In this document: piece by piece, positions 13,991-64,000 of the stretch
How the letters are laid out: every line of letters starts with the position of its first letter
How positions within the stretch are numbered: the stretch's first letter is position 1
Assembly: GCA_030949725.1 (NCBI GenBank)
Contig: JAUZSE010000006.1
Span: 1 to 64,000 of the forward strand
DNA from: Sulfurovum sp.
GTDB lineage: Bacteria > Campylobacterota > Campylobacteria > Campylobacterales > Sulfurovaceae
DNA: 64,000 nucleotides
Direction of reading: 5' to 3'
Translations under genes and position numbers: made by a program
Notes under the pieces: model-generated
Seen by the model: only the letters and a program-made list of their open reading frames with translations
Databases searched by the model: none
Told to the model about the DNA's origin: nothing

Positions 13991-15841
13991 CTATCTATCA
14001 GCAAAACAAATCTCAAATACCACCCCATCATCACTATTCTCTACTCTAATCTTCCCATCTAATCGCTCTTCTACCAACATCTTGACCATAGCCAGTCCAA
14101 TGCCATGTCCTTGTGCATCTCCTTTGGAACTCACAAAATAATCAAAGACTTTTTCAATAGGTTTAATTTTAATCCCTCCTGCATTGTCTCTATATCTAAG
14201 GATATGCTTCTTTTTATCACTTATTAGAGAGAGTTGTATTTGATTGTCATTTTGAGATTTAAACGCATCTAAAGAGTTATCAATCAGTACGATAATAATA
14301 TTTGAGAAAATATGTTCATAATTGATTATCTCTAAATTCTTGGGAATATCCATCGTTATTTTGGCATTTTTTAGTGTGCTTTTAGCAGACAATAGTGAAA
14401 TGCTGTTGTTTATAGTTTCTTTAGGTGAAAAAGCGATGCTTTCCATCTTCCCAGAATAATAGTGAGAGAGTTCTATCATCGTCTTTTTCATGTGTTTTAT
14501 AGAGTGAGTCATACATGGCAACTCTTTTTCAAGGTGCTGGAGTGTATTCTCTTTGTCGTGCCTAAAGATGGTTTCCAAAAGTGTAACAGAAGCACCAAGT
14601 AGTGTAAGAGGATGTTTCCATTGATGGGTAATATGTCCTATCGCTTGTCCCATAGAAGCAAAACGAGACTGTTCCATTAACATTATTTTGGATTTATTGT
14701 GTTTTTCACTCAATTGGCTATAGTAGTATGCTAAGGCTATTGAGAGTAAGAGTGCTTCAAAAAATGAGCCTATTTGAAAACCAAAAGTGGTTAATATACT
14801 TGAAGGAACTAGCCCAATATTACTAAAATGTGAGGTAGCAACACCTACAAGAAAAAAACTCCAAGCGATAAAATAAAAAAATGCATTAATATTTTTTTTG
14901 AAAAAAGCCAAATAAGAAACAATAATAAAAAGCATAATGACTTCAAAGAGGTTGCTAATGCTAACCATCTTTATACTGATACCATAGCCAAAAATAAATG
15001 GAGTGAGTGCTAGTACAAAATTGAGCCATACCCAAGTATATAAAAATAGATAGAGTTTGGGTATGAGTACCTTCAAATTTAAAAAATAAATGGTAAACAA
15101 AAGACCAAAAGAAGCAGCAATTGACATAAATATAGGGATAACATATTTATTGAGAGCAGGTGTATCAGGCCAAAACAGTTGAAAAGCGATACCTGATAAT
15201 GCTAAGGCAAATATCATGTGTGAGAGATGAAAAAGTACATAATATAAGAAGCTTTTATTTTTGGTCATAAGATAAGTAATAAAATTATACATAAGCATAA
15301 TGCTAATAGCTCCAAAGTAAAAAGCGAACCATTTTATCTGCCTAAAACTAGATTTATAATAATCAGATATATTTTGGATAGTGATACCTATATTCATGGA
15401 ACTGGCAGAAATAATCTTGATGAAAAATGTCTTTTCTTGTAGAGGAAGTAGCGTAAACTCATAATTGGAAGTAGGCATTAAGGAGTTTTTGTTATGAGGT
15501 CTATGGTCACCTAACTCTTTTTTGAGAGTAAATCTTTGACCTTCTAATTCATAAATATCAATAACATCTAGTGATGGAGATTTAAATTCAAGTATCTGCT
15601 CTGTTACTTCTTTTGTCTTATTTTTGAGCGTAACCTTAACCCAAAACAGTTGATTAACAAAACCAAAGTTTGAATGCTCTTTTTCTAAAGGTAAAAAAAG
15701 CCCATCGTCACTTTTCTTTTTAATCTCAGTAAATGCATAGGGTCTATTTTCCAATTGTATATAAGACAATATACTCTTAACCTCTTCTTGTGCAGAGAGT
15801 AAAGTATGAAAAAATAAACTCATTAATAATAGCAGCCGCAT
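13991..15841 (-). CDS. 7TM-DISM sensor histidine kinase
   Basis: Extracellular DISMED2-like domain, seven TM helices, SMGQAIGHITHQWKHPL phospho-acceptor, DNAGGIKIKPIEKVFDYF...GHGIGLAMVK ATPase. Confidence 0.88.
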   Translation of the reverse strand: MRLLLLMSLFFHTLLSAQEEVKSILSYIQLENRPYAFTEIKKKSDDGLFLPLEKEHSNFGFVNQLFWVKVTLKNKTKEVTEQILEFKSPSLDVIDIYELEGQRFTLKKELGDHRPHNKNSLMPTSNYEFTLLPLQEKTFFIKIISASSMNIGITIQNISDYYKSSFRQIKWFAFYFGAISIMLMYNFITYLMTKNKSFLYYVLFHLSHMIFALALSGIAFQLFWPDTPALNKYVIPIFMSIAASFGLLFTIYFLNLKVLIPKLYLFLYTWVWLNFVLALTPFIFGYGISIKMVSISNLFEVIMLFIIVSYLAFFKKNINAFFYFIAWSFFLVGVATSHFSNIGLVPSSILTTFGFQIGSFFEALLLSIALAYYYSQLSEKHNKSKIMLMEQSRFASMGQAIGHITHQWKHPLTLLGASVTLLETIFRHDKENTLQHLEKELPCMTHSIKHMKKTMIELSHYYSGKMESIAFSPKETINNSISLLSAKSTLKNAKITMDIPKNLEIINYEHIFSNIIIVLIDNSLDAFKSQNDNQIQLSLISDKKKHILRYRDNAGGIKIKPIEKVFDYFVSSKGDAQGHGIGLAMVKMLVEERLDGKIRVENSDDGVVFEICFADR

Positions 15842-15850
15842 AACTTCCCC

Positions 15851-16540
15851 CTAAACTTTAAACATATACCCATAAGCAGGGATATTTAAAATAACATCTT
15901 TGCCTACCTTTTTGCGTAAACGGTAGATAATACTCTTGACGGCTTGTTTGCTTTTGACTTCAACAGAGTCAAGACAAAGATTAATCTCTTCCATTAGAAC
16001 AATTTGATTTTTTTTCATAATAAAGAGTTCCAGTAGGCTAATTTCACTATTAGAAAGAGTCACTTTTTCCCCTTTGTCTATCAATGATTTACTAAATCTA
16101 TTATAGGAAATACAATCATTAATCACAATAATATCCAAACCATTGACTTCAATTTGCTCAATCATAGAGAGTAAAGTAGCCGTAAGTGAGGCATAATCTA
16201 TAGGTTTGATAAGATATTGAGCCAATGCAAGAGGGATAACGCTAAGTAGCTTTTCCTTGTCAGAATAATTACTCATAATCACAAGAGGGATATATCTATC
16301 TTTTTGGCGTATGGCTTTACACAGCCCATAACCATCAAGCACGGGCATAGAGTAATCACTAATTACCATATCTATAGATTGAGTATGATAAATATCAAGG
16401 GCTTCTTGCCCGTCTTTTGCCACGATAATATCATTGAAAAATAGCGATAAAAGTGTATGAAGCTTATCTAGTAACGCTTCTTCATCATCTACGAGTAAGA
16501 GTGTAAAATTCTTTAAAATATTGAGTTTTTCTTCATTCAT
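15851..16540 (-). CDS. OmpR-type response regulator
   Basis: Receiver domain (LLVDDEEALLDKL, MVISDYSMPVLDG, LIKPI) plus winged-helix C-terminus (VKSIIYRLRKKVGKDVILNIPAYGYMF). Confidence 0.9.
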   Translation of the reverse strand: MNEEKLNILKNFTLLLVDDEEALLDKLHTLLSLFFNDIIVAKDGQEALDIYHTQSIDMVISDYSMPVLDGYGLCKAIRQKDRYIPLVIMSNYSDKEKLLSVIPLALAQYLIKPIDYASLTATLLSMIEQIEVNGLDIIVINDCISYNRFSKSLIDKGEKVTLSNSEISLLELFIMKKNQIVLMEEINLCLDSVEVKSKQAVKSIIYRLRKKVGKDVILNIPAYGYMFKV

Positions 16541-16578
16541 TTTTAGCCTAATTTTTGATTTATTTTGTGCTTTAACAT

Positions 16579-16657
16579 CATAACATATCAGAGTAGCAAA
16601 GTAGTAGCAAAAGAATTTTTGGCTTGATACTACTTTGATTTTTTGGTTTGGTATAAT
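16579..16657 (+). promoter_or_regulatory. Dispersed promoter cassette copy A: 41-bp palindrome (16597-16637) plus TATAAT (16652-16657)
   Basis: Near-identical to 19541-19619 and 28085-28163; palindrome CAAAGTAGTA...TACTACTTTG with 10-bp perfect arms. Confidence 0.7.
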
Positions 16658-16960
16658 TTTTTTAGATTTTAGTATTGGGCTAAATCATTCAATGATAACC
16701 ATAAATTGCGTCAATATCAATGAATTAAGAATTACTGCTCTTTGGAAGTGACGGCTTCCGAAGAATTTGATATTTTACTTAATTTATAAGTGTTGATAAT
16801 ATCCGTGGGAACGAGAAAAAGAGATTATGGACTTGGTGGGTATAAACTATAAAAAGTGTATATTCAACGGCATGGTAAATGGTTTAAGAAGATGAGCAGA
16901 TGATACGATTACATTCACTTGACTCCTTTTCTCTAATTAAATATTAAGGAAATTAAATAA

Positions 16961-19321: not shown

Positions 19322-19421
19322 ACTGTTTTAAATATATAGAAAGTGAGATTTTTCCTCACTTTCTAAGTGACCTTAGGCACACCCCCATCCTTAAAAAAGC
19401 CAATAGAGATAATACCGTATA

Positions 19422-19619
19422 AAGCTTATCTAGTAACGCTTCTTCATCATCTACGAGTAAGAGTGTAAAATTCTTTAAAATATTGAGTTTTTCTTCATTC
19501 ATTTTTAGCCTAATTTTTTATTTATTTTGTGCTTTAACATCATAACATATCAGAGTGGCAAAGTAGTAGCAAAAGAATTTTTGCTTTGATACTACTTTGA
19601 TTTTTTGGTTTGGTATAAT
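19422..19619 (+). repeat. ~198-bp duplication of 16460-16657 (5' end of the response regulator gene plus promoter cassette copy B)
   Basis: AAGCTTATCTAGTAACGCTTCTTCATCATCTACGAG...GGTATAAT repeated with few differences; includes palindrome 19559-19599 and TATAAT 19614-19619. Confidence 0.9.
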
Positions 19620-19690
19620 ATTGAGAATATTAATATAAAGGAAAGAAAATGAAACATAACACAACACTCAAAAACCTATTGGCATATTTG

Positions 19691-19722
19691 CTGATACTGC
19701 TTTTTGCTGATACTGCTTTTTG
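19691..19722 (+). repeat. Perfect 16-bp tandem duplication CTGATACTGCTTTTTG x2 in a signal-peptide region
   Basis: Direct reading; one unit gives MKHNTTLKNLLAYLLILLFANTILYAS in frame, two units give a stop after ...FADTAFC. Confidence 0.95.
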
Positions 19723-22700
19723 CTAATACGATACTCTATGCCTCATATACACAAACAAGTGCAGGAGCTTATCATACCCTAGCCATCAAAAGTGATGGCA
19801 CACTTTGGGCTTGGGGAAACAATCAGTATGGTCAATTGGGAGATGGTACGACGACTCACAGAAGCATAGTTACCCAAGTAGGATTGGCTACAGATTGGAG
19901 CATGGTCTCTGTAGGAACTTATCATTCTCTAGCTATCAAAAGTGATGGTACACTTTGGGCTTGGGGAAGGAATAATGTTGGTCAATTGGGAGATGGTACA
20001 ACGACTGATAAGCCTACAGTTACCCAAGTAGGTTCAGCGACGAATTGGAATATGGTCTCAGGAGGAAGCTATTATTCTCTAGCCATCAAAAGTGATGGTA
20101 CACTTTGGTCTTGGGGAAGTAATCATGAGGGTCAATTGGGAGATGGTTCGACAACCACTAACCCTATAGTGACCCAAGTAGGTTCATCTACGAATTGGAA
20201 CATGGTTTCTGCAGGATCTTATTATTCCCTAGCTATCAAAAGTGATGGTACACTTTGGTCTTGGGGATGGAATGGTTTTAGTCAATTGGGAGATGGTACA
20301 ACGACCTCTAATCCCACAGCTACCCAAATAGGCTTGGATACAGATTGGAGCATGATTTCTGCAAGAGATTTTCATTCCCTAGCTCTCAAAAGTGATGGTA
20401 CACTTTGGGCTTGGGGACGTAATGATTATGGTCAATTAGGTGATGGTACAACGACGAATAACACTACCGTTACCCAAGTAGGATTGGCTACAGATTGGAG
20501 CATGGTCTCTGTAGGAACTTATCATTCTCTAGCTATCAAAAATAATGGCACACTTTGGGCTTGGGGACAAAATGATGAGGGTCAATTGGGAGATGGCACA
20601 ACGACTGATAAGCATACCGTTACCCAAGTAGGTTCTGCGACGAATTGGAATATGGTTTCTACACGCATCAATCATTCCTCAGCCATCAAAAGTGATAGCA
20701 CACTTTGGGCTTGGGGATATAATTCTGATGGTCAATTGGGAGATGGAAGCATAATAGGTAAAAATGTACCTACACAAATCTTGAACCCTGTACCAACATC
20801 CCATGACGCAAGTTTCACACTGGCATTAAATACTACAAAAACATTTACATCAAGTGACTTTCCCTTTGCAGATGAAAACACAGAAGATACTTTAACGGCT
20901 ATTTACATTACGAACCTAGTAGATAAAGGAAATCTAACACTAAATGGTAGTGAAGTCGCACTAAACCAAGAGATAGTTGTTGCAGATATAGCCAATCTTC
21001 AGTTTACACCTCTAGCAGATGAAAATGCTATACCCTACACAACATTTGACTTTAGAGTCAATGATGGTGAGTTTAACTCTACACTAATGTATACCGTTAC
21101 TATCAATGTTGACTTAGACGCAGACAATGATGGCATAGCAGATAGCATAGATACCGACGATGATAATGATGGCATTTCTGATGCAGATGAACTCTTATGG
21201 GGCTTTGATCCTTTAGACGCTAGTGATGGTGGAGATACTGATAGTGATGGAGATGGTGTCAGTAATAAAGATGAAATCTTAGCAGGTTCATACCCCACAG
21301 ATGCAAGGAGTACACAAATCTTAGCAGTGGGATATGCACAAATTAGTGCAGGATTTTTGCATACTCTAGCTGTTAAATATGATGGTACACTTTGGTCTTG
21401 GGGACAAAATGAGTATGGACAATTAGGAGATGACACAACGACTGATAAGCTTAGAGCTACACAAATCGGTTCTGCGACGAATTGGCGTATGGTCTCAGGA
21501 GGGGTCTATCATTCACTAGCCATCAAAAGTGATGGCACACTTTGGTCTTGGGAACGTAATGAGTATGGTCAATTGGGAGATGGCACAACGACGAATAACC
21601 CTATAGCTACCCAAGTAGGTTCAGCGACGAATTGGAGTATGGTCTCAGCAGGAACCTATCATTCTTTAGCCATCAAAAGTGATGCTACACTTTGGTCTTG
21701 GGGGTATAATGCTACTGGTCAATTGGGAGATGGGACATGGACTGATAAGTTTACAGTTACCCAAGTAGGTTCTGCTACGAACTGGAGTATGGTCTCAGCG
21801 GGGTTCCATTCCTTAGCCCTCAAAAGTGATGGTACACTTTGGTCTTGGGGACGCAATAATTATGGTCAATTGGGAGATGGTAGCACTACAAATAAAAATG
21901 TACCTACACAAATCTTGAAGCATGCACCAACATCCAATGACATAAGTTTCACACTACTAAACAACACGACAAAAACATTTGCATCAAGTGACTTTCCCTT
22001 TGCAGATGAAGATGAAGATACTTTCACGGCTATTTACATTACGAGCCTAGTAGATAAAGGAAACTTAACACTAAATGGTAGTGAAGTCGTACGAAACCAA
22101 GAGATAGTTGTTGCAGATATAGCCAATCTACTCTTTACCCCTGTAGCAGATGAAAGTGGCACACCCTACACAACATTTGACTTTAGAGTCAATGATGGTG
22201 AGTCTAGCTCTACACTAGCGTATACCGTTACTATCAATATTGATTTAGACACAGACAATGATGGTATACCAGATAGCAGTGATAGGGATGATGACAATGA
22301 TGGTGTACTAGATGTAAATGATGCTTTTCCTCTTGACCCTGATGAGTCTTCAGATATTGATGGAGATGGTATTGGTGATAATGCTGATACAAATAACCTA
22401 GATGGACCATTAGCTGATTTTGATAATGATGGTATTTTAAATCAAGATGATTTAGATGATGACAACGATACTATGCCTGATACGTATGAGATAGAAAACA
22501 ACCTAGACCCACTTAATCCTGCTGATGCAAGTACAGATGCAGATAGTGATACATATAGCAACATAGAAGAGTATAACGTAGGTTCAGACCCACAAGATCC
22601 TAGTAGCAATACTTTCTCTTTGGCTATAAGCGACCATACAAAGTATTTCCTTTCTACTACAAGAGACTTAGGTGTTAGGGTTTTTGATACAGATGGTACG

Positions 22701-22818
22701 TATGCAGGAGAATTGACAGTAGGTGCTAGTACTTCATCTATATCAGGTACTTATGAAATTTTAGCGAAGGTCATGACGCTTAACAGAATCACACCTTCTT
22801 CTTTAACCACTGAACTAA

Positions 22819-24096
22819 GGACTAAAACATAAATAAAACCAAATTACTAGTACTTTTTAGGAATAGCAACATAATTCCAAAGTGGTAAATGTATATCAAA
22901 GATAATTTTCATATTCTCTTTAAAGCCCTCTGCATATTTTCTTTTTGTATGAAATACCTTATCAAGAATAGAACTAAAAACTTTCAATCCTGTAGTCGTT
23001 TTAGTTTGTGCAATAAGGGTATTTACTAACTCTACACTTGTAAAAATGACTCCTTGTAAAGCTCTTGTGATATGAGGGAATAGGCGATGTTCTATAGGAT
23101 TATACTTTGATGTATAAGGAGGATAATGAGCAATACGAATTTCAATTTGTAATTCCTCTGATAACTTCTGTAAATCTTCTTTAAAAATATAGTGACGAGA
23201 GCTATTACTGCCCCCACCATCGCACAGTAGTAGCAGTTTATCATGTCCTTGATATTCAATATATCCATAATTTAACCACCAATTTTTGATAGATTCACAA
23301 GCAAATTCACTGGTATCAGCACTTGTCCCTATGGTAATATAACCAATATTTAGGTTTATATCATACAGCCCATAGGGGACAATTTTTCCCTCTGCGTAAG
23401 AAGGAAAATCATGGTCTTTAACTTTAATTATCTCTTGAGTATACAGTTTACCTTCTCGGTATAAATTTCCTAAAAACTCTTTTTTTTACATCCATACTCA
23501 AAACAGGATTCCCCTCTTTCTTATATTCTTCTTTTAGTTTTTCAATATTTTTAAATTGCTCATCTCTATTTGCAACATCTACTTTTCCTGAAAGTGTTTT
23601 AAATGCTTGTCGCTTACGAAAATGATGTTTTTTAAGAGTTGTTTCACTATATCCACATCAACTACAAAACCTTTCTCTGACAATCTAGTTTGTAGCTCTT
23701 TCCGTGATAAATTTGTCCACTTTATCGTCTCATCCATCGGTGAACCTGCTGTACTCTCTGCGATAACCTCTAGGAATGCTTCGTCTAAGCCTTCTCTTGT
23801 GAGCAATATAGACTTTCTTCCTCCTCCCTCTTCTCTTTGTCTTTTATTATCTTTATCTAATTCTGTTCTTAACTCTTTTTGTCCTCTTGACACACCACTA
23901 TAGTCACATTCAAAGATTTCGCATATATAGCTTATCCCTCCATGACTTAATTTGGTTGCTTCTATTCCTGCGTAGCGTCTTCTGTCTTTCTCTGATAAAC
24001 TTTTATATAGATTTAGCATTTGCTCTTCTATTTCTTTTGGGTACTTTTTCATAAATAGTATTTTAGCTTATTTTGGGTTTGTTTATCTTGTTGTCC
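22819..24096 (-). mobile_element. ISAzo13-like insertion sequence, copy 1 (1278 bp, defective)
   Basis: Ends GGACTAAAACATAAATAAAACC / GGACAACAAGATAAACAAACCC; TAA on both sides as a likely 3-bp target duplication; transposase in two frames (23579..24052 and ~22847..23490), with an extra T in the T-run at ~23480. Confidence 0.88.
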
Positions 24097-24315
24097 TAAG
24101 CTACTTAGATGACAATGTTACTGTGATGCATTTTAATGTGTCTAGTGATGCAAATAATTCTCAAACTTCTTTTTTACAACACACAAGAAGAAAGAGATGC
24201 AGATATAAGTACTTCTACTAAGGTGAATCCTGCGGTACTTATGTATTTGTTGAATTAGGTTACCTTTTTACCTTCCTTGCTTCTAGCTAGACTAGAGGTA
24301 AGGTTTTATTAGTCA

Positions 24316-27300
24316 TTAAAAAACCTCTAAAAACTCCACTCCATTTTTAGAGCCAAGCAGTAAAAAGCTTCTTAATTTAGGAATGCTTTTTACTTTATCA
24401 AGTGTCTTATAGCCTTCTATTTGCTCTAAACCTTCTTTTTTAACACTTTCATAATTATCGCTATTTTTGTAACCCCCTAAATAACCCCACCAACCCAATA
24501 TTAAGCAAAGCATCACACAGCTAAAATAAGCAAAAAACATCACATAAAAAAGTCATTTACTAACCAAGTATAGTAGTAGTTTTAGCTATAATAGCACTAT
24601 GAAAACAGAGCTTATTGATATAGAAAAACTACAAGAAATCATTATAAATCAAGCTCAAGAAAGCAGTGTTCAAAAAGAACAAATTACTACTCAAGAAAAA
24701 AGAATACAAACCCAACAAATTGAAATAAATCACCTAAAAGAAAAGATAGATTACCTCATACGTCAACACTTTACCTCCAAAAGTGAAAAACTAAACCCTA
24801 ACCAACCAACTCTCTTTGAAGACAATGAAGAGAGTATTGAAGTAGTAGAAGATGAAGAGATTGAAATAACATTCAAAAGAAAGAGAGGTGGAAGAACTTC
24901 TCCACCTACTGATATACCAAGAGTAAGAGTAGAGCACGATATCAGTGATGATGAGAAGATATGTAGCTGTGGTGATACAATGCACAAGATTAAAGAACTT
25001 GTATCAGAACAATACGATATAGTACCTGCAAAATTTCAAGTCATACAAAACGTTAGATTCGTATATGGTTGTAGATGTGGAGAGAAACCAAGCACAACAG
25101 CATTGGCATACATTTATCCTCCCAAAGACACAAGTAACCGCTTCATTCTTAGCAACTATTGCTGTACAAAAGTTTGAAGATGCATTGCCACTGTACAGAC
25201 AAGCTAAAATTTATAAAAATAGATTTGGGGTTGCATTCAATGATACGACACTCTCTAATTGGATGATAAAAGCTTCTGAAAAACTAAAACATTTTAAAGA
25301 AAAACTCAAAGAGAGACTCCTAGAGAATGAATATATACAAGCAGATGAGACGACACTTCAAGTAGTGAATGCACACAAAGGCAAAGCAACAAAAAATCCT
25401 ATATATGGCTAGGTGTAGGAATGGATAAATATAAAATTGTCTATATGCACTATGCCAATAACAGGAGTGCAGTGGCAGCGACCGCACTCCTCGAGGGCTT
25501 TAGTGGTTTTCTACAAACAGATGGATACGCTGGATATAATGATGTGGTCAAGACAAATGATATGACACATCTAGCTTGCTGAGAACCACGCTAGACGAAA
25601 GTTTGCAGATATAGTCAAATCAGGAGTCAGTGACCCACAAAGTAAGAGTTATGCACAAGAAGCCATAACACTCATACAGAAACTCTATAAAATAGAAAAA
25701 GAGATAAAAGATGATCCTCCTGATAAAAAGTTAATTATCAGAAAGAGAAATCTCAACCTATCATCAACACTATAAGAGAATGGATTAACACAAAGTTCTA
25801 TAAAGCACAAGAACTTGGTGGTGCTATTGCTAAAGCATTTGTGTATCTCAATAATCAATTTCCTAAGCTAAAAGTCTATCTTACTGATGGAAGACTCAAT
25901 ATTGATAATAATGGAGCAGAAAACCATATAAGACCTATGGTACTTGGTAGAAAGAATTGGTTATTTGCTACTTCTGTGAAAGGTGCTGAGGCTATTGCTA
26001 CTTGGTACACTATTATAGAGACTGCTAAGGCTAATGGATTAGAACCCTATCACTACTTGAAGTATCTTATGACTGAGTTTCCTTATTATCAAAGAGATGG
26101 TAGGGATATTGAGGCGTTGTTACCTTGGAATGTAAGTGCTGATGGGATAGTTAGGATTTCTTAGAGGTTGGTTGGTGGGGTTATTGTGGGGGTTACCTTT
26201 TTTTCATCCATTTTAATTCAAACAAATAGTTGTTAGGTACTTTTTCATCGCGTCCTATGAGTAAAATATCAGGATACTTGTTGTCAAGTTCTGGTTGAGA
26301 GTCGATGAAGTAAAAAGAAGCAAAACTAAGCAATGAAAGCGTAATGACTTGAAAATATTTTTCTCTAAAACCGTAATAGTCTCTGTTTGAGAGTGTTTTT
26401 ATGACAACATTGAGTTGCGTGTTAAAAGGGTCAATCTTACCTTGTGCTAAATCAATTAAGAGAGCTTGAATATCAGTGAGTCCTGCAAGATTATTTCTGT
26501 TTTTAAGCTCAATGGCAAAGTAATTAAAATAGAGAATTTTAATGACATAATTGGGTACTTTAAATTCTAAAATCTCTCCAAAAGCTTCATTTTTAATAGT
26601 AATAAACCCCATAGAATAAATAAGCGTAATAAAGTCATCTCGTGTAAAGTCTTGATTTAAATCATATCGGTCTTTGATTTCACCTGTAATGCTATTGTTT
26701 TCTATGAGTTCTTCTAAGACTTTATAGTTTCGCTCACTGTCTCCAATGTTAAAGAGTTTCATAATGGCTTTGTAATCACTTGCTACATTGGAGTCTAACA
26801 TCTTTGTGGGCATCGTACAATCAGTATAGTCAAACCTTGAAATAAAATAGTTAACTAAAGTTGCATTATAGACTCTTTCCTTAGCTTTTATATTAAAGAG
26901 ATAACCATTGTACCACTCTTTTATCTTAGCTAAAAGTTGTTCCTTGTCTATGTTTGGACAAGTCTTAAAAATAGAATTTTCCAATGAAAGCTCTACTTCT
27001 TTTTGACTAAATCCTGCCATCAGATTAAATGCTTGATGATTTGAGATATTACTCACAATATTAAACCCAGAACTCAAACTATCAAGTGTAATGGGCGTTA
27101 CTCCTGTAATGAACATCTTTTGAACCACACCTGTCCCAGTAGCACTTTTAAGCACTTCATAAAAGCTTCTTACAAAACCACCTTTCCCAACTATGTCTAA
27201 AAAGTCTTCCATCTTGTAAGCTAAGATGGCATTGGCAAATTGGTCGTATTCGTCTATGAGTAGATAGATGTTATCTTCTTTTACAATTTTGAAAAAACGG

Positions 27301-27746: not shown

Positions 27747-28084
27747 TAGCCCTTTACATACTATCTTCTAAGTATATCTAATCTTGATAAATAGCGATAA
27801 AACTATCGCTTAAAATATTATTAGCATAGAGTTCTACTAATCAACCGTATTTGCATTATCAAACACATTATTTTCAAAATTAGATACTTTTGAAAAAAGT
27901 TCTGTTTTTCTGTTCAAGCATATCACCTAACAAGCTAATACCCCACGAACTAAGTAAACCTTATATCATCAAAAGGTTTTTTATACAGTTTTAGCATTGT
28001 TTCCCAACTTGAAGTTGGGAATGTCCTAGAACGCGTAGGGTCGGTTTACCGACCACTTAATGCAAGAGAATATTTAACCTCCTT

Positions 28085-28163
28085 CATAACATATCAGAGT
28101 GGCAAAGTAGTAGCAAAAGAATTTTTGCTTTGATACTACTTTGATTTTTTGGTTTGGTATAAT
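28085..28163 (+). promoter_or_regulatory. Dispersed promoter cassette copy C: palindrome 28103-28143 plus TATAAT 28158-28163
   Basis: Near-identical to copies A and B, with the same palindrome-to-TATAAT spacing. Confidence 0.7.
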
Positions 28164-28333
28164 TTCTTTATTCATGAAGGAGTATAGTAGTTTTATAACT
28201 ACTCCAAAATAGAATAAATGAGTTGCTGTGTAATATGGTGGGATAATCTTATCAATAAGAGTAATTTTTCAATAAAAATAGCTTTTTATATTTAATCAGC
28301 CAAAACAATACAAACTTTATCAAAAGGATATAT

Positions 28334-29278
28334 ATGAAAAACTTTTCGAACAAAATAGCACTATTGCTATTTACAACCCTAACACTTCTTACTCTCTCAG
28401 GATGTGGAGGTACTAGCTCAGGAAATAATGATAGTGTTCCTGATACAACTAAACCTATAATAACTTTAACAGGTGAGTCTACAGTAAATATAGCAAAAGG
28501 AGTTACTTATAACGATGCAGGAGCTATAGCAAATGATACTGTAGATGGAGATATCACAGCGAAGATAATAAAAGGTGGTGATACCGTAGATACTAGTAAA
28601 ATAGGTACATATACTATTACTTATAATGTCACTGACAAAGCAAGTAATCAGGCAACAGAAGTGAAAAGAATAGTAATTGTAAGTGAAGCTTGCAACGCTA
28701 TGGTACATAATGGAGAAGAATATTGTCCTGTCACTTCACCAAATACAGGCAAAGTATGGCTAGATAGAAACCTTGGTGCTGCACAAGTATGCGAAACAGT
28801 TGATGATACTGCTTGTTATGGTGACTACTATCAGTGGGGAAGAAATTTTGATGGACATCAAGATATCATAAGTGGTACTACGGTTACACAAGCAACAGAT
28901 ATTAACAATGCAGGAAATGAGTTTATCACTAGTACGGGTGATTGGGCTTCAGTAGATTTAAATGGAAGCCAAAGAAGTGCTAATTGGTCTAAAACAGATG
29001 GAACTTCTATATGTCCTATAGGATATAGAGTGCCAACATATGATGAACTTGCAGCAGAAATGACACCTCTACAAAATTTTGTCGCTTTTAAGACTTTCTT
29101 AAAATTACCATCCACGGGTATCCGTAAATCTACTGATGGTATTATCTTTGAGAAAGATACTAAAGGTTACTTATTGTCTTCTGGTGCAAGTCTTGTAAGC
29201 TTCGGTACAATTGGTGGTACAGGTTCTGGAACTTTTCCTCGTGCTATGGGTGCACCCGTACGCTGTATCAAACATTAA
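28334..29278 (+). CDS. Lipoprotein with DUF5011-like Ig domain and FISUMP-like C-terminal domain
   Basis: Lipobox LSGCGG; GVTYNDAGAIANDTVDGDIT...GTYTITYNVTDKASNQA; VWLDRNLGAAQVCE...GYRVPTYDE...APVRCIK. Confidence 0.8.
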   Translation: MKNFSNKIALLLFTTLTLLTLSGCGGTSSGNNDSVPDTTKPIITLTGESTVNIAKGVTYNDAGAIANDTVDGDITAKIIKGGDTVDTSKIGTYTITYNVTDKASNQATEVKRIVIVSEACNAMVHNGEEYCPVTSPNTGKVWLDRNLGAAQVCETVDDTACYGDYYQWGRNFDGHQDIISGTTVTQATDINNAGNEFITSTGDWASVDLNGSQRSANWSKTDGTSICPIGYRVPTYDELAAEMTPLQNFVAFKTFLKLPSTGIRKSTDGIIFEKDTKGYLLSSGASLVSFGTIGGTGSGTFPRAMGAPVRCIKH

Positions 29279-38337: not shown

Positions 38338-38536
38338 AACATAAATAAAACCAAATTACTAGTACTTTTTAGGAATAGCAACATAATTCCAAAGTGGTAA
38401 ATGTATATCAAAGATAATTTTCATATTCTCTTTAAAGCCCTCTGCATATTTTCTTTTGTATGAAATACCTTATCAAGAATAGAACTAAAAACTTTCAATC
38501 CTGTAGTCGTTTTAGTTTGTGCAATAAGGGTATTTA
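38331..38536 (-). mobile_element. ISAzo13-like partial copy (206-bp transposase 3' end)
   Basis: Starts GGACTAAAACATAAATAAAACC and is abutted by a second, full copy beginning with the same end at 38537. Confidence 0.9.
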
Positions 38537-39813
38537 GGACTAAAACATAAATAAAACCAAATTACTAGTACTTTTTAGGAATAGCAACATAATTCCAAAG
38601 TGGTAAATGTATATCAAAGATAATTTTCATATTCTCTTTAAAGCCCTCTGCATATTTTCTTTTTGTATGAAATACCTTATCAAGAATAGAACTAAAAACT
38701 TTCAATCCTGTAGTCGTTTTAGTTTGTGCAATAAGGGTATTTACTAACTCTACACTTGTAAAAATGACTCCTTGTAAAGCTCTTGTGATATGAGGGAATA
38801 GGCGATGTTCTATAGGATTATACTTTGATGTATAAGGAGGATAATGAGCAATACGAATTTCAATTTGTAATTCCTCTGATAACTTCTGTAAATCTTCTTT
38901 AAAAATATAGTGACGAGAGCTATTACTGCCCCCACCATCGCACAGTAGTAGCAGTTTATCATGTCCTTGATATTCAATATATCCATAATTTAACCACCAA
39001 TTTTTGATAGATTCACAAGCAAATTCACTGGTATCAGCACTTGTCCCTATGGTAATATAACCAATATTTAGGTTTATATCATACAGCCCATGGGGGACAA
39101 TTTTTCCCTCTGCGTAAGAAGGAAAATCATGGTCTTTAACTTTAATTATCTCTTGAGTATACAGTTTACCTTCTCGGTATAAATTTCCTAAAAACTCTTT
39201 TTTTACATCCATACTCAAAACAGGATTCCCCTCTTTCTTATATTCTTCTTTTAGTTTTTCAATATTTTTAAATTGCTCATCTCTATTTGCAACATCTACT
39301 TTTCCTGAAAGTGTTTTAAATGCTTGTCGCTTACGAAAATGATGTTTTTTAAGAGTTGTTTCACTATATCCACATCAACTACAAAACCTTTCTCTGACAA
39401 TCTAGTTTGTAGCTCTTTCCGTGATAAATTTGTCCACTTTATCGTCTCATCCATCGGTGAACCTGCTGTACTCTCTGCGATAACCTCTAGGAATGCTTCG
39501 TCTAAGCCTTCTCTTGTGAGCAATATAGACTTTCTTCCTCCTCCCTCTTCTCTTTGTCTTTTATTATCTTTATCTAATTCTGTTCTTAACTCTTTTTGTC
39601 CTCTTGACACACCACTATAGTCACATTCAAAGATTTCGCATATATAGCTTATCCCTCCATGACTTAATTTGGTTGCTTCTATTCCTGCGTAGCGTCTTCT
39701 GTCTTTCTCTGATAAACTTTTATATAGATTTAGCATTTGCTCTTCTATTTCTTTTGGGTACTTTTTCATAAATAGTATTTTAGCTTATTTTGGGTTTGTT
39801 TATCTTGTTGTCC
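38537..39813 (-). mobile_element. ISAzo13-like insertion sequence, copy 2 (1277 bp, best-preserved copy)
   Basis: Ends as in copy 1; transposase N part 39296..39769 and DDE part 38565..39218 (LLLLCDGGGSNSSRHYIFKEDLQKL, HYPPYTSKYNPIEHRLFPHITRALQG). Confidence 0.92.
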
Positions 39814-39823
39814 TAACCTCTCT

Positions 39824-63062: not shown

Positions 63063-63455
63063 ATGCAAAATAAAACCCAAAAATTCCCATGGGGAATATA
63101 CATAGGCGACCTCATAGACAATAATGACACTATACCACTCTGCCTAGATAGCAAAAAAGGTGGGTTTTGTGTGTTGTTTGATGAGAGTAGTGAAGCCATA
63201 GCCAATAACTTTATAGAAAATATAGCCTTAAAGCTTTTGGAAGTGATGCCAATAGGGAGTATAGAAGTAGATGTATTTGATTTTGGAAAACCAAGATTTA
63301 TGAAACTCTCTGCACTCAAAACTGCCAATCTCTACACTGCCTCATATTCCAAAAACAGAGCAACAGATAGGTTTGATGCTTTAGAGGAGTTACAAAATGA
63401 GAGACTGCATACACTTTTGAACTATGAGACTCCTACGCTTAGGACAACAAGATAA
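63063..63455 (+). pseudogene. N-terminal fragment of a larger protein (possibly FtsK/SpoIIIE-like ATPase), truncated by an ISAzo13-like element
   Basis: WGIYIGDLIDNNDTIPLCLDSKKGGFCVLFDESSEAIANNFIENIALKLLEVMPIGSIEVDVFDFGKPRFMKLSAL; frame enters the IS end at 63443. Confidence 0.45.
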
Positions 63456-64000
63456 ACAAACCCAAAATAAGCTAAAATACTATTTATGAAAAAGTACCCA
63501 AAAGAAATAGAAGAGCAAATGCTAAATCTATATAAAAGTTTATCAGAGAAAGACAGAAGACGCTACGCAGGAATAGAAGCAACCAAATTAAGTCATGGAG
63601 GGATAAACTATATATGCGAAATCTTTGAATGTGACTATAGTGGTGTGTCAAGAGGACAAAAAGAGTTAAGAACAGAATTAGATAAAGATAATAAAAGACA
63701 AAGAGAAGAGGGAGGATAAGAAAGTCTATATTGCTCACAAGAGAAGGCTTAGACGAAGCATTCCTAGAGGTTATCGCAGAGAGTACAGCAGGTTCACCGA
63801 TGGATGAGACGATAAAGTGGACAAATTTATCACGGAAAGAGCTACAAACTAGATTGTCAGAGAAAGGTTTTGTAGTTGATGTGGATATAGTGAAACAACT
63901 CTTAAAAAACATCATTTTCGTAAGCGACAAGCATTTAAAACACTTTCAGGAAAAGTAGATGTTGCAAATAGAGATGAGCAATTTAAAAATATTGAAAAAC
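63443..64000 (+). mobile_element. ISAzo13-like insertion sequence, copy 3 (runs off window)
   Basis: End GGACAACAAGATAAACAAACCC; transposase N part 63486..63719 and 63731..63958, broken at GGAGGATAAG versus GGAGGAGGAAG in the other copies. Confidence 0.9.

What the first reader, a model, noticed from the sequence alone, without database searches (positions are those of the whole stretch)
16597..16637. Three-copy dispersed promoter module with a 41-bp palindrome upstream of surface-protein genes and a two-component system
Seen: CAAAGTAGTA-GCAAAA-GAAT-TTTTGC-TTTGA-TACTACTTTG (arms start 31 bp apart, about three helical turns) at 16597-16637, 19559-19599 and 28103-28143. Each is followed after 14 bp by TATAAT. 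Downstream plus-strand genes encode a clostripain-like lipoprotein, an RCC1-repeat protein and a DUF5011/FISUMP-like lipoprotein. Copy A also lies just upstream of the divergent response-regulator/histidine-kinase genes. Inference: a small regulon in which the OmpR-type regulator binds the palindrome and controls exported proteins plus itself, spread by duplicating the promoter cassette.
Basis: partly seen in the sequence, partly recalled or inferred. Interest (0 to 1): 0.72.

Follow-up and report, generated by a model that had tools for sequence, protein, structure and literature searches.

The report
Copied two-way switch for surface-protein genes
The repeated palindrome is really two back-to-back landing sites for a PhoB-like regulator, part of a sensor-regulator-promoter cassette that has been copied in front of several unrelated surface-protein genes in a sulfur bacterium related to Sulfurovum.

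Summary
In detail: the 41-bp element with TATAAT 14 bp downstream is at all three coordinates, and a fourth copy lies on another contig. The palindrome is not the conserved feature. Related cassettes in Sulfurovaceae BB41 lose its outer arms (6-7 of 10 pairs left) but keep two head-to-head boxes. Each box is an 11-bp direct repeat (TGCTAC/TGCTAC towards the regulator, TGATAC/TGATTT towards the exported gene) whose second half-site starts 16 bp before a -10 hexamer, as in the E. coli phoA pho box. Distant relatives with another half-site (TGAAAC) and a changed recognition helix keep the geometry on both sides. In this genome and BB41 a 34-nt box pattern matches only these cassettes (14 hits; reversed control 0). 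Best reading: the adjacent OmpR/PhoB-type regulator binds each box and activates itself and the divergent surface-protein gene. The unit copied is the whole kinase-regulator-promoter cassette (2.67 kb, 99.6% identical at two sites); copy B is truncated, copy C an 80-bp remnant. Kinase sensor domains differ between otherwise similar cassettes. Homologues of two target genes lack the cassette. No binding or transcription was tested. The regulator type is known; the copied, sensor-swapping cassette is a new variant.

The parts
13991..15841 (-). Histidine kinase with 7TMR-DISM sensor (616 aa)
   Evidence: Pfam 7TMR-DISMED2, 7TMR-DISM_7TM, HATPase_c; duplicated at G000:C7
15851..16540 (-). OmpR/PhoB-type response regulator (229 aa)
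   Evidence: Pfam Response_reg + Trans_reg_C; identical protein at G000:C7:77335-78021
16577..16609 (-). Copy A, regulator-facing box: TGCTAC (16609-16604) and TGCTAC (16598-16593), -10 TATGAT (16582-16577)
16625..16657 (+). Copy A, exported-gene-facing box: TGATAC (16625-16630) and TGATTT (16636-16641), -10 TATAAT (16652-16657)
16597..16637 (.). The reported 41-bp palindrome of copy A: the inner parts of the two head-to-head boxes
13999..16672 (.). Cassette (kinase, regulator, two-way promoter) duplicated at 99.55% identity at G000:C7
16961..19321 (+). Clostripain-family (Peptidase_C11) lipoprotein, proposed target of copy A
19401..19502 (-). Remnant of a second regulator gene (first 34 codons, 91% identical)
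19539..19571 (-). Copy B, regulator-facing box: TGCTAC, TGCCAC, -10 TATGAT
19587..19619 (+). Copy B, exported-gene-facing box: TGATAC, TGATTT, -10 TATAAT
19704..22832 (+). RCC1-repeat protein, proposed target of copy B (the first ATG, at 19649, is out of frame with it)
28084..28163 (.). Copy C: 80-bp remnant running from one -10 to the other, identical to copy B
28131..28163 (+). Copy C, exported-gene-facing box: TGATAC, TGATTT, -10 TATAAT
28083..28115 (-). Copy C, regulator-facing box; -10 altered to TATGAA, probably dead
28334..29278 (+). Bact_surface_Ig-like lipoprotein, proposed target of copy C

Best explanation
The element is a two-way promoter with two OmpR/PhoB-type operator boxes placed head to head. 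Each box is two half-sites repeated in the same direction 11 bp apart, and the second half-site starts 16 bp before a -10 hexamer, so it overlaps the -35 position. The adjacent response regulator, phosphorylated by its 7TMR-DISM histidine kinase, most likely binds each box as a head-to-tail dimer and helps RNA polymerase start. One arm raises expression of the regulator and kinase; the other drives an exported surface protein. Copies B and C answer to the same regulator in trans. The cassette (kinase, regulator, two-way promoter) has been copied next to unrelated surface-protein genes, and between copies the sensor part of the kinase has been exchanged while promoter, regulator and kinase core stayed alike. 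Shown: the sequence architecture, its conservation, the copies, the sensor mosaic, and homologues of target genes without the cassette. Inferred: binding, activation rather than repression, autoregulation, and capture of pre-existing genes.
For: Pattern TTGMTACTNNNTTGMTWNTNTNRTWTGKTATRMT with 3 mismatches hits 8 places in this genome and 6 in BB41, all at the seven cassettes; reversed control 0. Cassettes in BB41 (regulator 88-91%) and the GLR69 relative (56%) were found. Geometry 11 bp / 16 bp is also seen, with half-site TGAAAC on both sides, in G019 (L118) and the fourth BB41 relative (L094), and on the regulator side of G309 (L119, three tandem TTTTGCTACTA repeats). Their recognition helix differs (QAIKNLIHRLRVK in G019 against QAVKSIIYRLRKK in the window), and GLR69, whose helix is nearly the same as the window's, keeps TGCTAC. 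Upstream of 59 regulator homologues, 11-bp direct repeats are enriched (19 loci against 6.6 in shuffles); most other spacings are at background, 13 bp mildly raised (13 against 5.7). The -10 distance peaks at 14-17, mode 16. The E. coli phoA box has the same geometry: TGTCATAAAGT TGTCACGGCCGAGACT TATAGT (site listed in PMC10294691; 11-nt repeats in PMC4415409, overlap of -35 in PMC3348028). Duplicate cassette, 99.55% over 2674 bp. Sensor mosaic 39-57% between flanks of 80-93%. Regulator divergent from an exported gene in G019, G309, G104 and GLR69 too. Clostripain homologues in G119 and G285 and the paralogue of the C7 lipoprotein at C23 have no cassette upstream.
Against: No binding, footprint or transcript data. 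The divergent side of GLR69 (L083) has the 11-bp repeat but no -10 at 16 bp, and the divergent side of G309 is unclear. The second half-site of the exported-gene box (TGATTT) is a weaker match. The same TGCTAC box with the same -10 spacing precedes acetate-metabolism-like genes in other families of the order, so the half-site is not unique to this regulator. The genome is about 70% complete, so further targets may be missing. The kinase of the C7 copy is frameshifted in the assembly.
Confidence: 0.8

Rival explanations
1. The regulator, or a pair of dimers, recognises the 41-bp palindrome itself as an inverted repeat.
For: Perfect 10-bp outer arms in copies A, B and C, starting 31 bp apart.
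Against: Outer arms fall to 8 of 10 in C7 and 6-7 of 10 in BB41, while 11-bp repeats and their distance to the -10 are kept. The palindrome does not explain the third tandem repeat in G309 or the 16-bp spacing on both sides.
Confidence: 0.08
2. The segment is a promoter or operator for some other factor, and the kinase-regulator pair next to it is incidental.
For: The same TGCTAC box with the same geometry precedes acetate-type genes in other families of the order. Copy C has no regulator beside it.
Against: In this genome and BB41 every hit is in a cassette and none lies elsewhere. Boxes sit upstream of the regulator in all full copies and in relatives at 45-56% identity, and the half-site changes where the recognition helix changes.
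Confidence: 0.1
3. The 80-bp unit is a mobile palindromic repeat (REP- or MITE-like) or a recombination site used to shuffle surface genes.
For: Dispersed copies; copy C is an isolated 80-bp unit identical to B; a REP-type transposase-like ORF lies near the fourth BB41 relative.
Against: Only four copies in 1.77 Mb, each before an exported gene; no terminal inverted repeats or target duplications recognised at the boundaries compared; both -10 sites lie outside the palindrome, so it cannot be an invertible promoter.
Confidence: 0.06
4. The palindrome is an RNA hairpin or terminator.
For: The B/C version folds well as RNA (-14 kcal/mol, z -4.2).
Against: It lies upstream of both -10 sites, so neither transcript contains it; folding weakens in relatives, down to z -1.5.
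Confidence: 0.02

Closest known systems
E. coli PhoB pho box (phoA)
   Same: Two 11-bp direct repeats; second half-site starts 16 bp before the -10 at phoA; overlaps -35; OmpR-type regulator.
   Different: Half-site is TGCTAC/TGATAC, not TGTCA; boxes are paired head to head; kinase is a 7TMR-DISM protein, targets are surface proteins; no sign of a phosphate link.
Autoregulated two-component systems divergent from their target gene (general knowledge)
   Same: Regulator-kinase operon and target transcribed from one shared intergenic region.
   Different: Here the whole unit is multi-copy, with orphan promoter copies elsewhere and sensors exchanged between copies.
Campylobacter jejuni PhosS/PhosR
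   Same: A two-component system named in PMC4415409 among those that act through PHO boxes, in the same phylum.
   Different: A phosphate system; not linked to surface-protein cassettes. Its site was not compared here.

Membership tests
OmpR/PhoB-type response regulator | Receiver domain plus Trans_reg_C winged helix | tested here: met
   Response_reg 2.4e-20, Trans_reg_C 1.8e-08; full-length match to the DNA-binding response regulator D, 1kgs
OmpR/PhoB-type response regulator | Conserved acidic pocket, acceptor Asp and Lys | tested here: met
   D19, D62 and K112 invariant in alignment A1
OmpR/PhoB-type response regulator | Target site of tandem direct repeats about 11 bp apart | tested here: met
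   (site geometry only)
OmpR/PhoB-type response regulator | Direct binding and contact with sigma70 | not testable with these tools
   needs protein and DNA
Pho regulon (PhoBR) | TGTCA-type half-sites | tested here: not met
   half-sites TGCTAC/TGATAC; works like a pho box but is not filed as one
7TMR-DISM histidine kinase | 7TMR-DISMED2 + 7TMR-DISM_7TM + HATPase_c | tested here: met
   relatives
7TMR-DISM histidine kinase | Recognised phospho-acceptor (HisKA) domain | tested here: inconclusive
   no Pfam HisKA hit; GHITHQWKHPL motif seen in the sequence
REP/MITE mobile repeat | Many copies, terminal inverted repeats or target duplications | tested here: not met
   four copies; none recognised at boundaries
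Invertible (phase-variable) promoter | Promoter lying between inverted repeats | tested here: not met
   both -10 sites lie outside the arms

The most novel reading that the evidence does not exclude
A complete signalling cassette (sensor kinase, regulator, two-way promoter) spreads as a unit and captures pre-existing, unrelated surface-protein genes into one shared regulon, while exchange of sensor domains lets different signals feed the same operator. The regulon would grow by copying its promoter rather than by evolving binding sites in place.
Probability: 0.35. Interest if true: 0.65.

Novelty: new variant of a known kind. Interest (0 to 1): 0.45.

Why it matters
It gives a concrete operator code for a little-studied group of 7TMR-DISM two-component systems in Campylobacterota, with half-sites that appear to change along with the recognition helix. 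It also offers a testable case of a regulon growing by copying a whole regulatory cassette in front of surface-protein genes, with shared output and swapped sensors.

Tried and rejected
RNA families: only tRNA and group II introns in the window, nothing at the element. RNA hairpin or terminator: folding not kept in relatives. Phage or plasmid origin: no relative of the regulator in viral contigs, only 33% matches on two plasmids. Transposon-like ends: none recognised at the duplication boundaries. The first degenerate pattern was mis-spaced and gave no hits. Literature: PhoB papers gave the pho-box comparison; searches for 7TMR-DISM with direct repeats and for sensor swapping returned nothing on such a cassette, but the library lacks most subscription journals.

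Full report
WHAT IS THERE. A fourth copy lies at G000:C7:78078. The shared unit is about 80 bp. Copy A and the C7 copy sit inside a 2674-bp block, 99.55% identical, that holds the kinase, the regulator and the two-way promoter; the identity begins in the last codons of the kinase gene and ends about 15 bp after the -10. The regulator proteins are identical. Copy B keeps only the first 34 codons of the regulator (19401-19502). Copy C is 80 bp, running from one -10 to the other, identical to B.

RELATIVES. A scan of species genomes found three cassettes in the MAG Sulfurovaceae bacterium BB41 (regulator 88-91%) and one relative in the MAG Helicobacteraceae GLR69 (56%). Whole-genome searches added G019 (45%), a fourth BB41 relative (44%) and G309. 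The window therefore most likely comes from a Sulfurovum-like member of the Campylobacterota (inference).

THE OPERATOR. Reading the regulator promoter in the regulator's sense: TTGCTACTACTTTGCTACTCTGATATGT TATGAT in copy A; TTGCTACTCTGTTGCTACTCTGATATGT TATGAT in BB41 L080; TTGCTACCAGTTTGCTACTTTATTAATG TATAAC in GLR69. The other strand: TTGATACTACTTTGATTTTTTGGTTTGG TATAAT in A, B and C. Both are two half-sites 11 bp apart, the second starting 16 bp before the -10. The two boxes face each other with 13 bp between their TTG starts in all seven cassettes (positions). The palindrome is what these two inverted boxes look like from outside. Its outer arms match at 10 of 10 in A, B and C, 8 in C7 and 6-7 in BB41, so symmetry is not what is conserved. 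In G019 and the fourth BB41 relative the half-site is TGAAAC, again on both sides at 11 and 16 bp (G019: TGAAACTTTGC TGAAACTCCTAAATGT TATAAT and TGAAACCCCGT AGAAACTTGAGTATTG TATAAT; the first of these was read by eye because the script stopped short of the gene start). G309 has three tandem TTTTGCTACTA units before TATAGT. The recognition-helix region is QAVKSIIYRLRKK in the window, QAIKSLIYRLRKK in GLR69 and QAIKNLIHRLRVK in G019: the half-site differs where the helix differs. This is a correlation over few families.

STATISTICS. Upstream of 59 regulator homologues of the order, near-perfect 8-nt direct repeats at spacing 11 occur in 19 loci against 6.6 in dinucleotide shuffles (largest of 20 shuffles 10). 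Most other spacings from 8 to 23 are at background; 13 is mildly raised (13 against 5.7). With a strong 11-bp repeat, the -10 distance peaks at 14-17, mode 16 (the register is uncertain by a base or two). A 34-nt pattern with three mismatches gives 14 hits in this genome and BB41, all at cassettes, and none with the reversed pattern. That pattern was written after seeing the cassettes, so finding them is by construction; the informative part is that nothing else matches.

COMPARISON WITH PHOB. The E. coli phoA site reads TGTCATAAAGT TGTCACGGCCGAGACT TATAGT, 11 and 16 bp, located just upstream of phoA. PMC4415409 describes pho boxes as two 11-nt direct repeats; PMC3348028 says the PhoB sites overlap -35; PMC10294691 lists the phoA site and notes strict spacing to the core promoter. 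So the element works like a pho box, but with other half-sites, another type of kinase and other targets; it is not filed in the Pho regulon.

TARGETS. Divergent genes: clostripain lipoprotein (A), RCC1-repeat protein (B), Ig-like lipoprotein (C), hemopexin-repeat lipoprotein (C7); DUF4214 or Ig-like exported proteins in BB41; a choloylglycine-hydrolase-family protein beside the fourth BB41 relative; a large repeat protein in G019; a Glug protein in G309; a cadherin-domain protein in G104; a solute-binding protein in GLR69. Export was judged from N-terminal sequences by eye. Homologues of the clostripain lipoprotein (54%) in G119 and G285, and the paralogue of the C7 lipoprotein (54%, G000:C23), have no cassette upstream; G285 shows only about 150 bp upstream because the contig ends. 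This fits capture of existing genes, but movement of the genes next to cassettes is not excluded.

SENSOR SWAP. Aligned cassettes A/L081 and L080/L082 share 80-93% identity in promoter, regulator and kinase core but 39-57% across the sensor part. All sensors are 7TMR-DISM. Exchange of sensors on a shared output is the simplest reading; no tree was built.

ORDER-WIDE NOTE. The box TTGCTAC-N4-TTGCTAC-N10-TATRNY (one mismatch) occurs in 41 of 399 genomes of the order, about 50 hits against 6 for the reversed pattern. In family f8 it mostly precedes an ActP-like symporter, and also Pta, an acyl-CoA thioesterase and a SatP-like gene (gene names from sequence recall, not from a family search). So the half-site is not private to this regulator, though in the window's genome it was found only at cassettes.

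VERDICT. Observation confirmed. Interpretation right in outline, wrong about the palindrome. Mechanism likely (0.8) but unproven at the bench. The regulator class is ordinary; the copied, sensor-swapping cassette is the point of interest.

Noticed in passing
Order-wide, e.g. L183-L188, L192-L210: TTGCTAC-N4-TTGCTAC-N10-TATAMT boxes precede ActP-like symporter, Pta, thioesterase and SatP-like genes in family f8: a possible acetate or short-chain fatty acid regulon with the same box geometry.
   Followed up: partly
window 19649-19710: The first ATG after copy B is out of frame with the RCC1 gene; a 16-bp tandem duplication (CTGATACTGCTTTTTG) in the signal-peptide region shifts the frame. Slippage, phase variation or assembly error.
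   Followed up: partly
L072:9457-11324: The kinase of the C7 cassette is split into two frames, while its regulator is intact and identical to copy A's.
   Followed up: no
window 16682-16877; G060:C68:3805-4029 and 203-418: About 200 bp of the leader between promoter A and the clostripain gene recurs at 74-77% identity in BB41, once after the same kind of two-way promoter. Looks like a relic of an older gene.
   Followed up: partly
window 28079-28182: Copy C is flanked by a 9-bp inverted repeat CTCCTTCAT/ATGAAGGAG of unknown meaning.
   Followed up: no
window 22818-24101, 38530-39816, 63437-64000; 24465-26196: Repeated ISAzo13-like transposase copies, and an IS66-like element that recurs at C7 (L072:514-2246), among the cassette copies (the IS66 name is from sequence recall).
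   Followed up: no
L094:378-1130: REP-associated-type transposase-like ORF near the fourth BB41 regulator (named from sequence, not from a family search).
   Followed up: no
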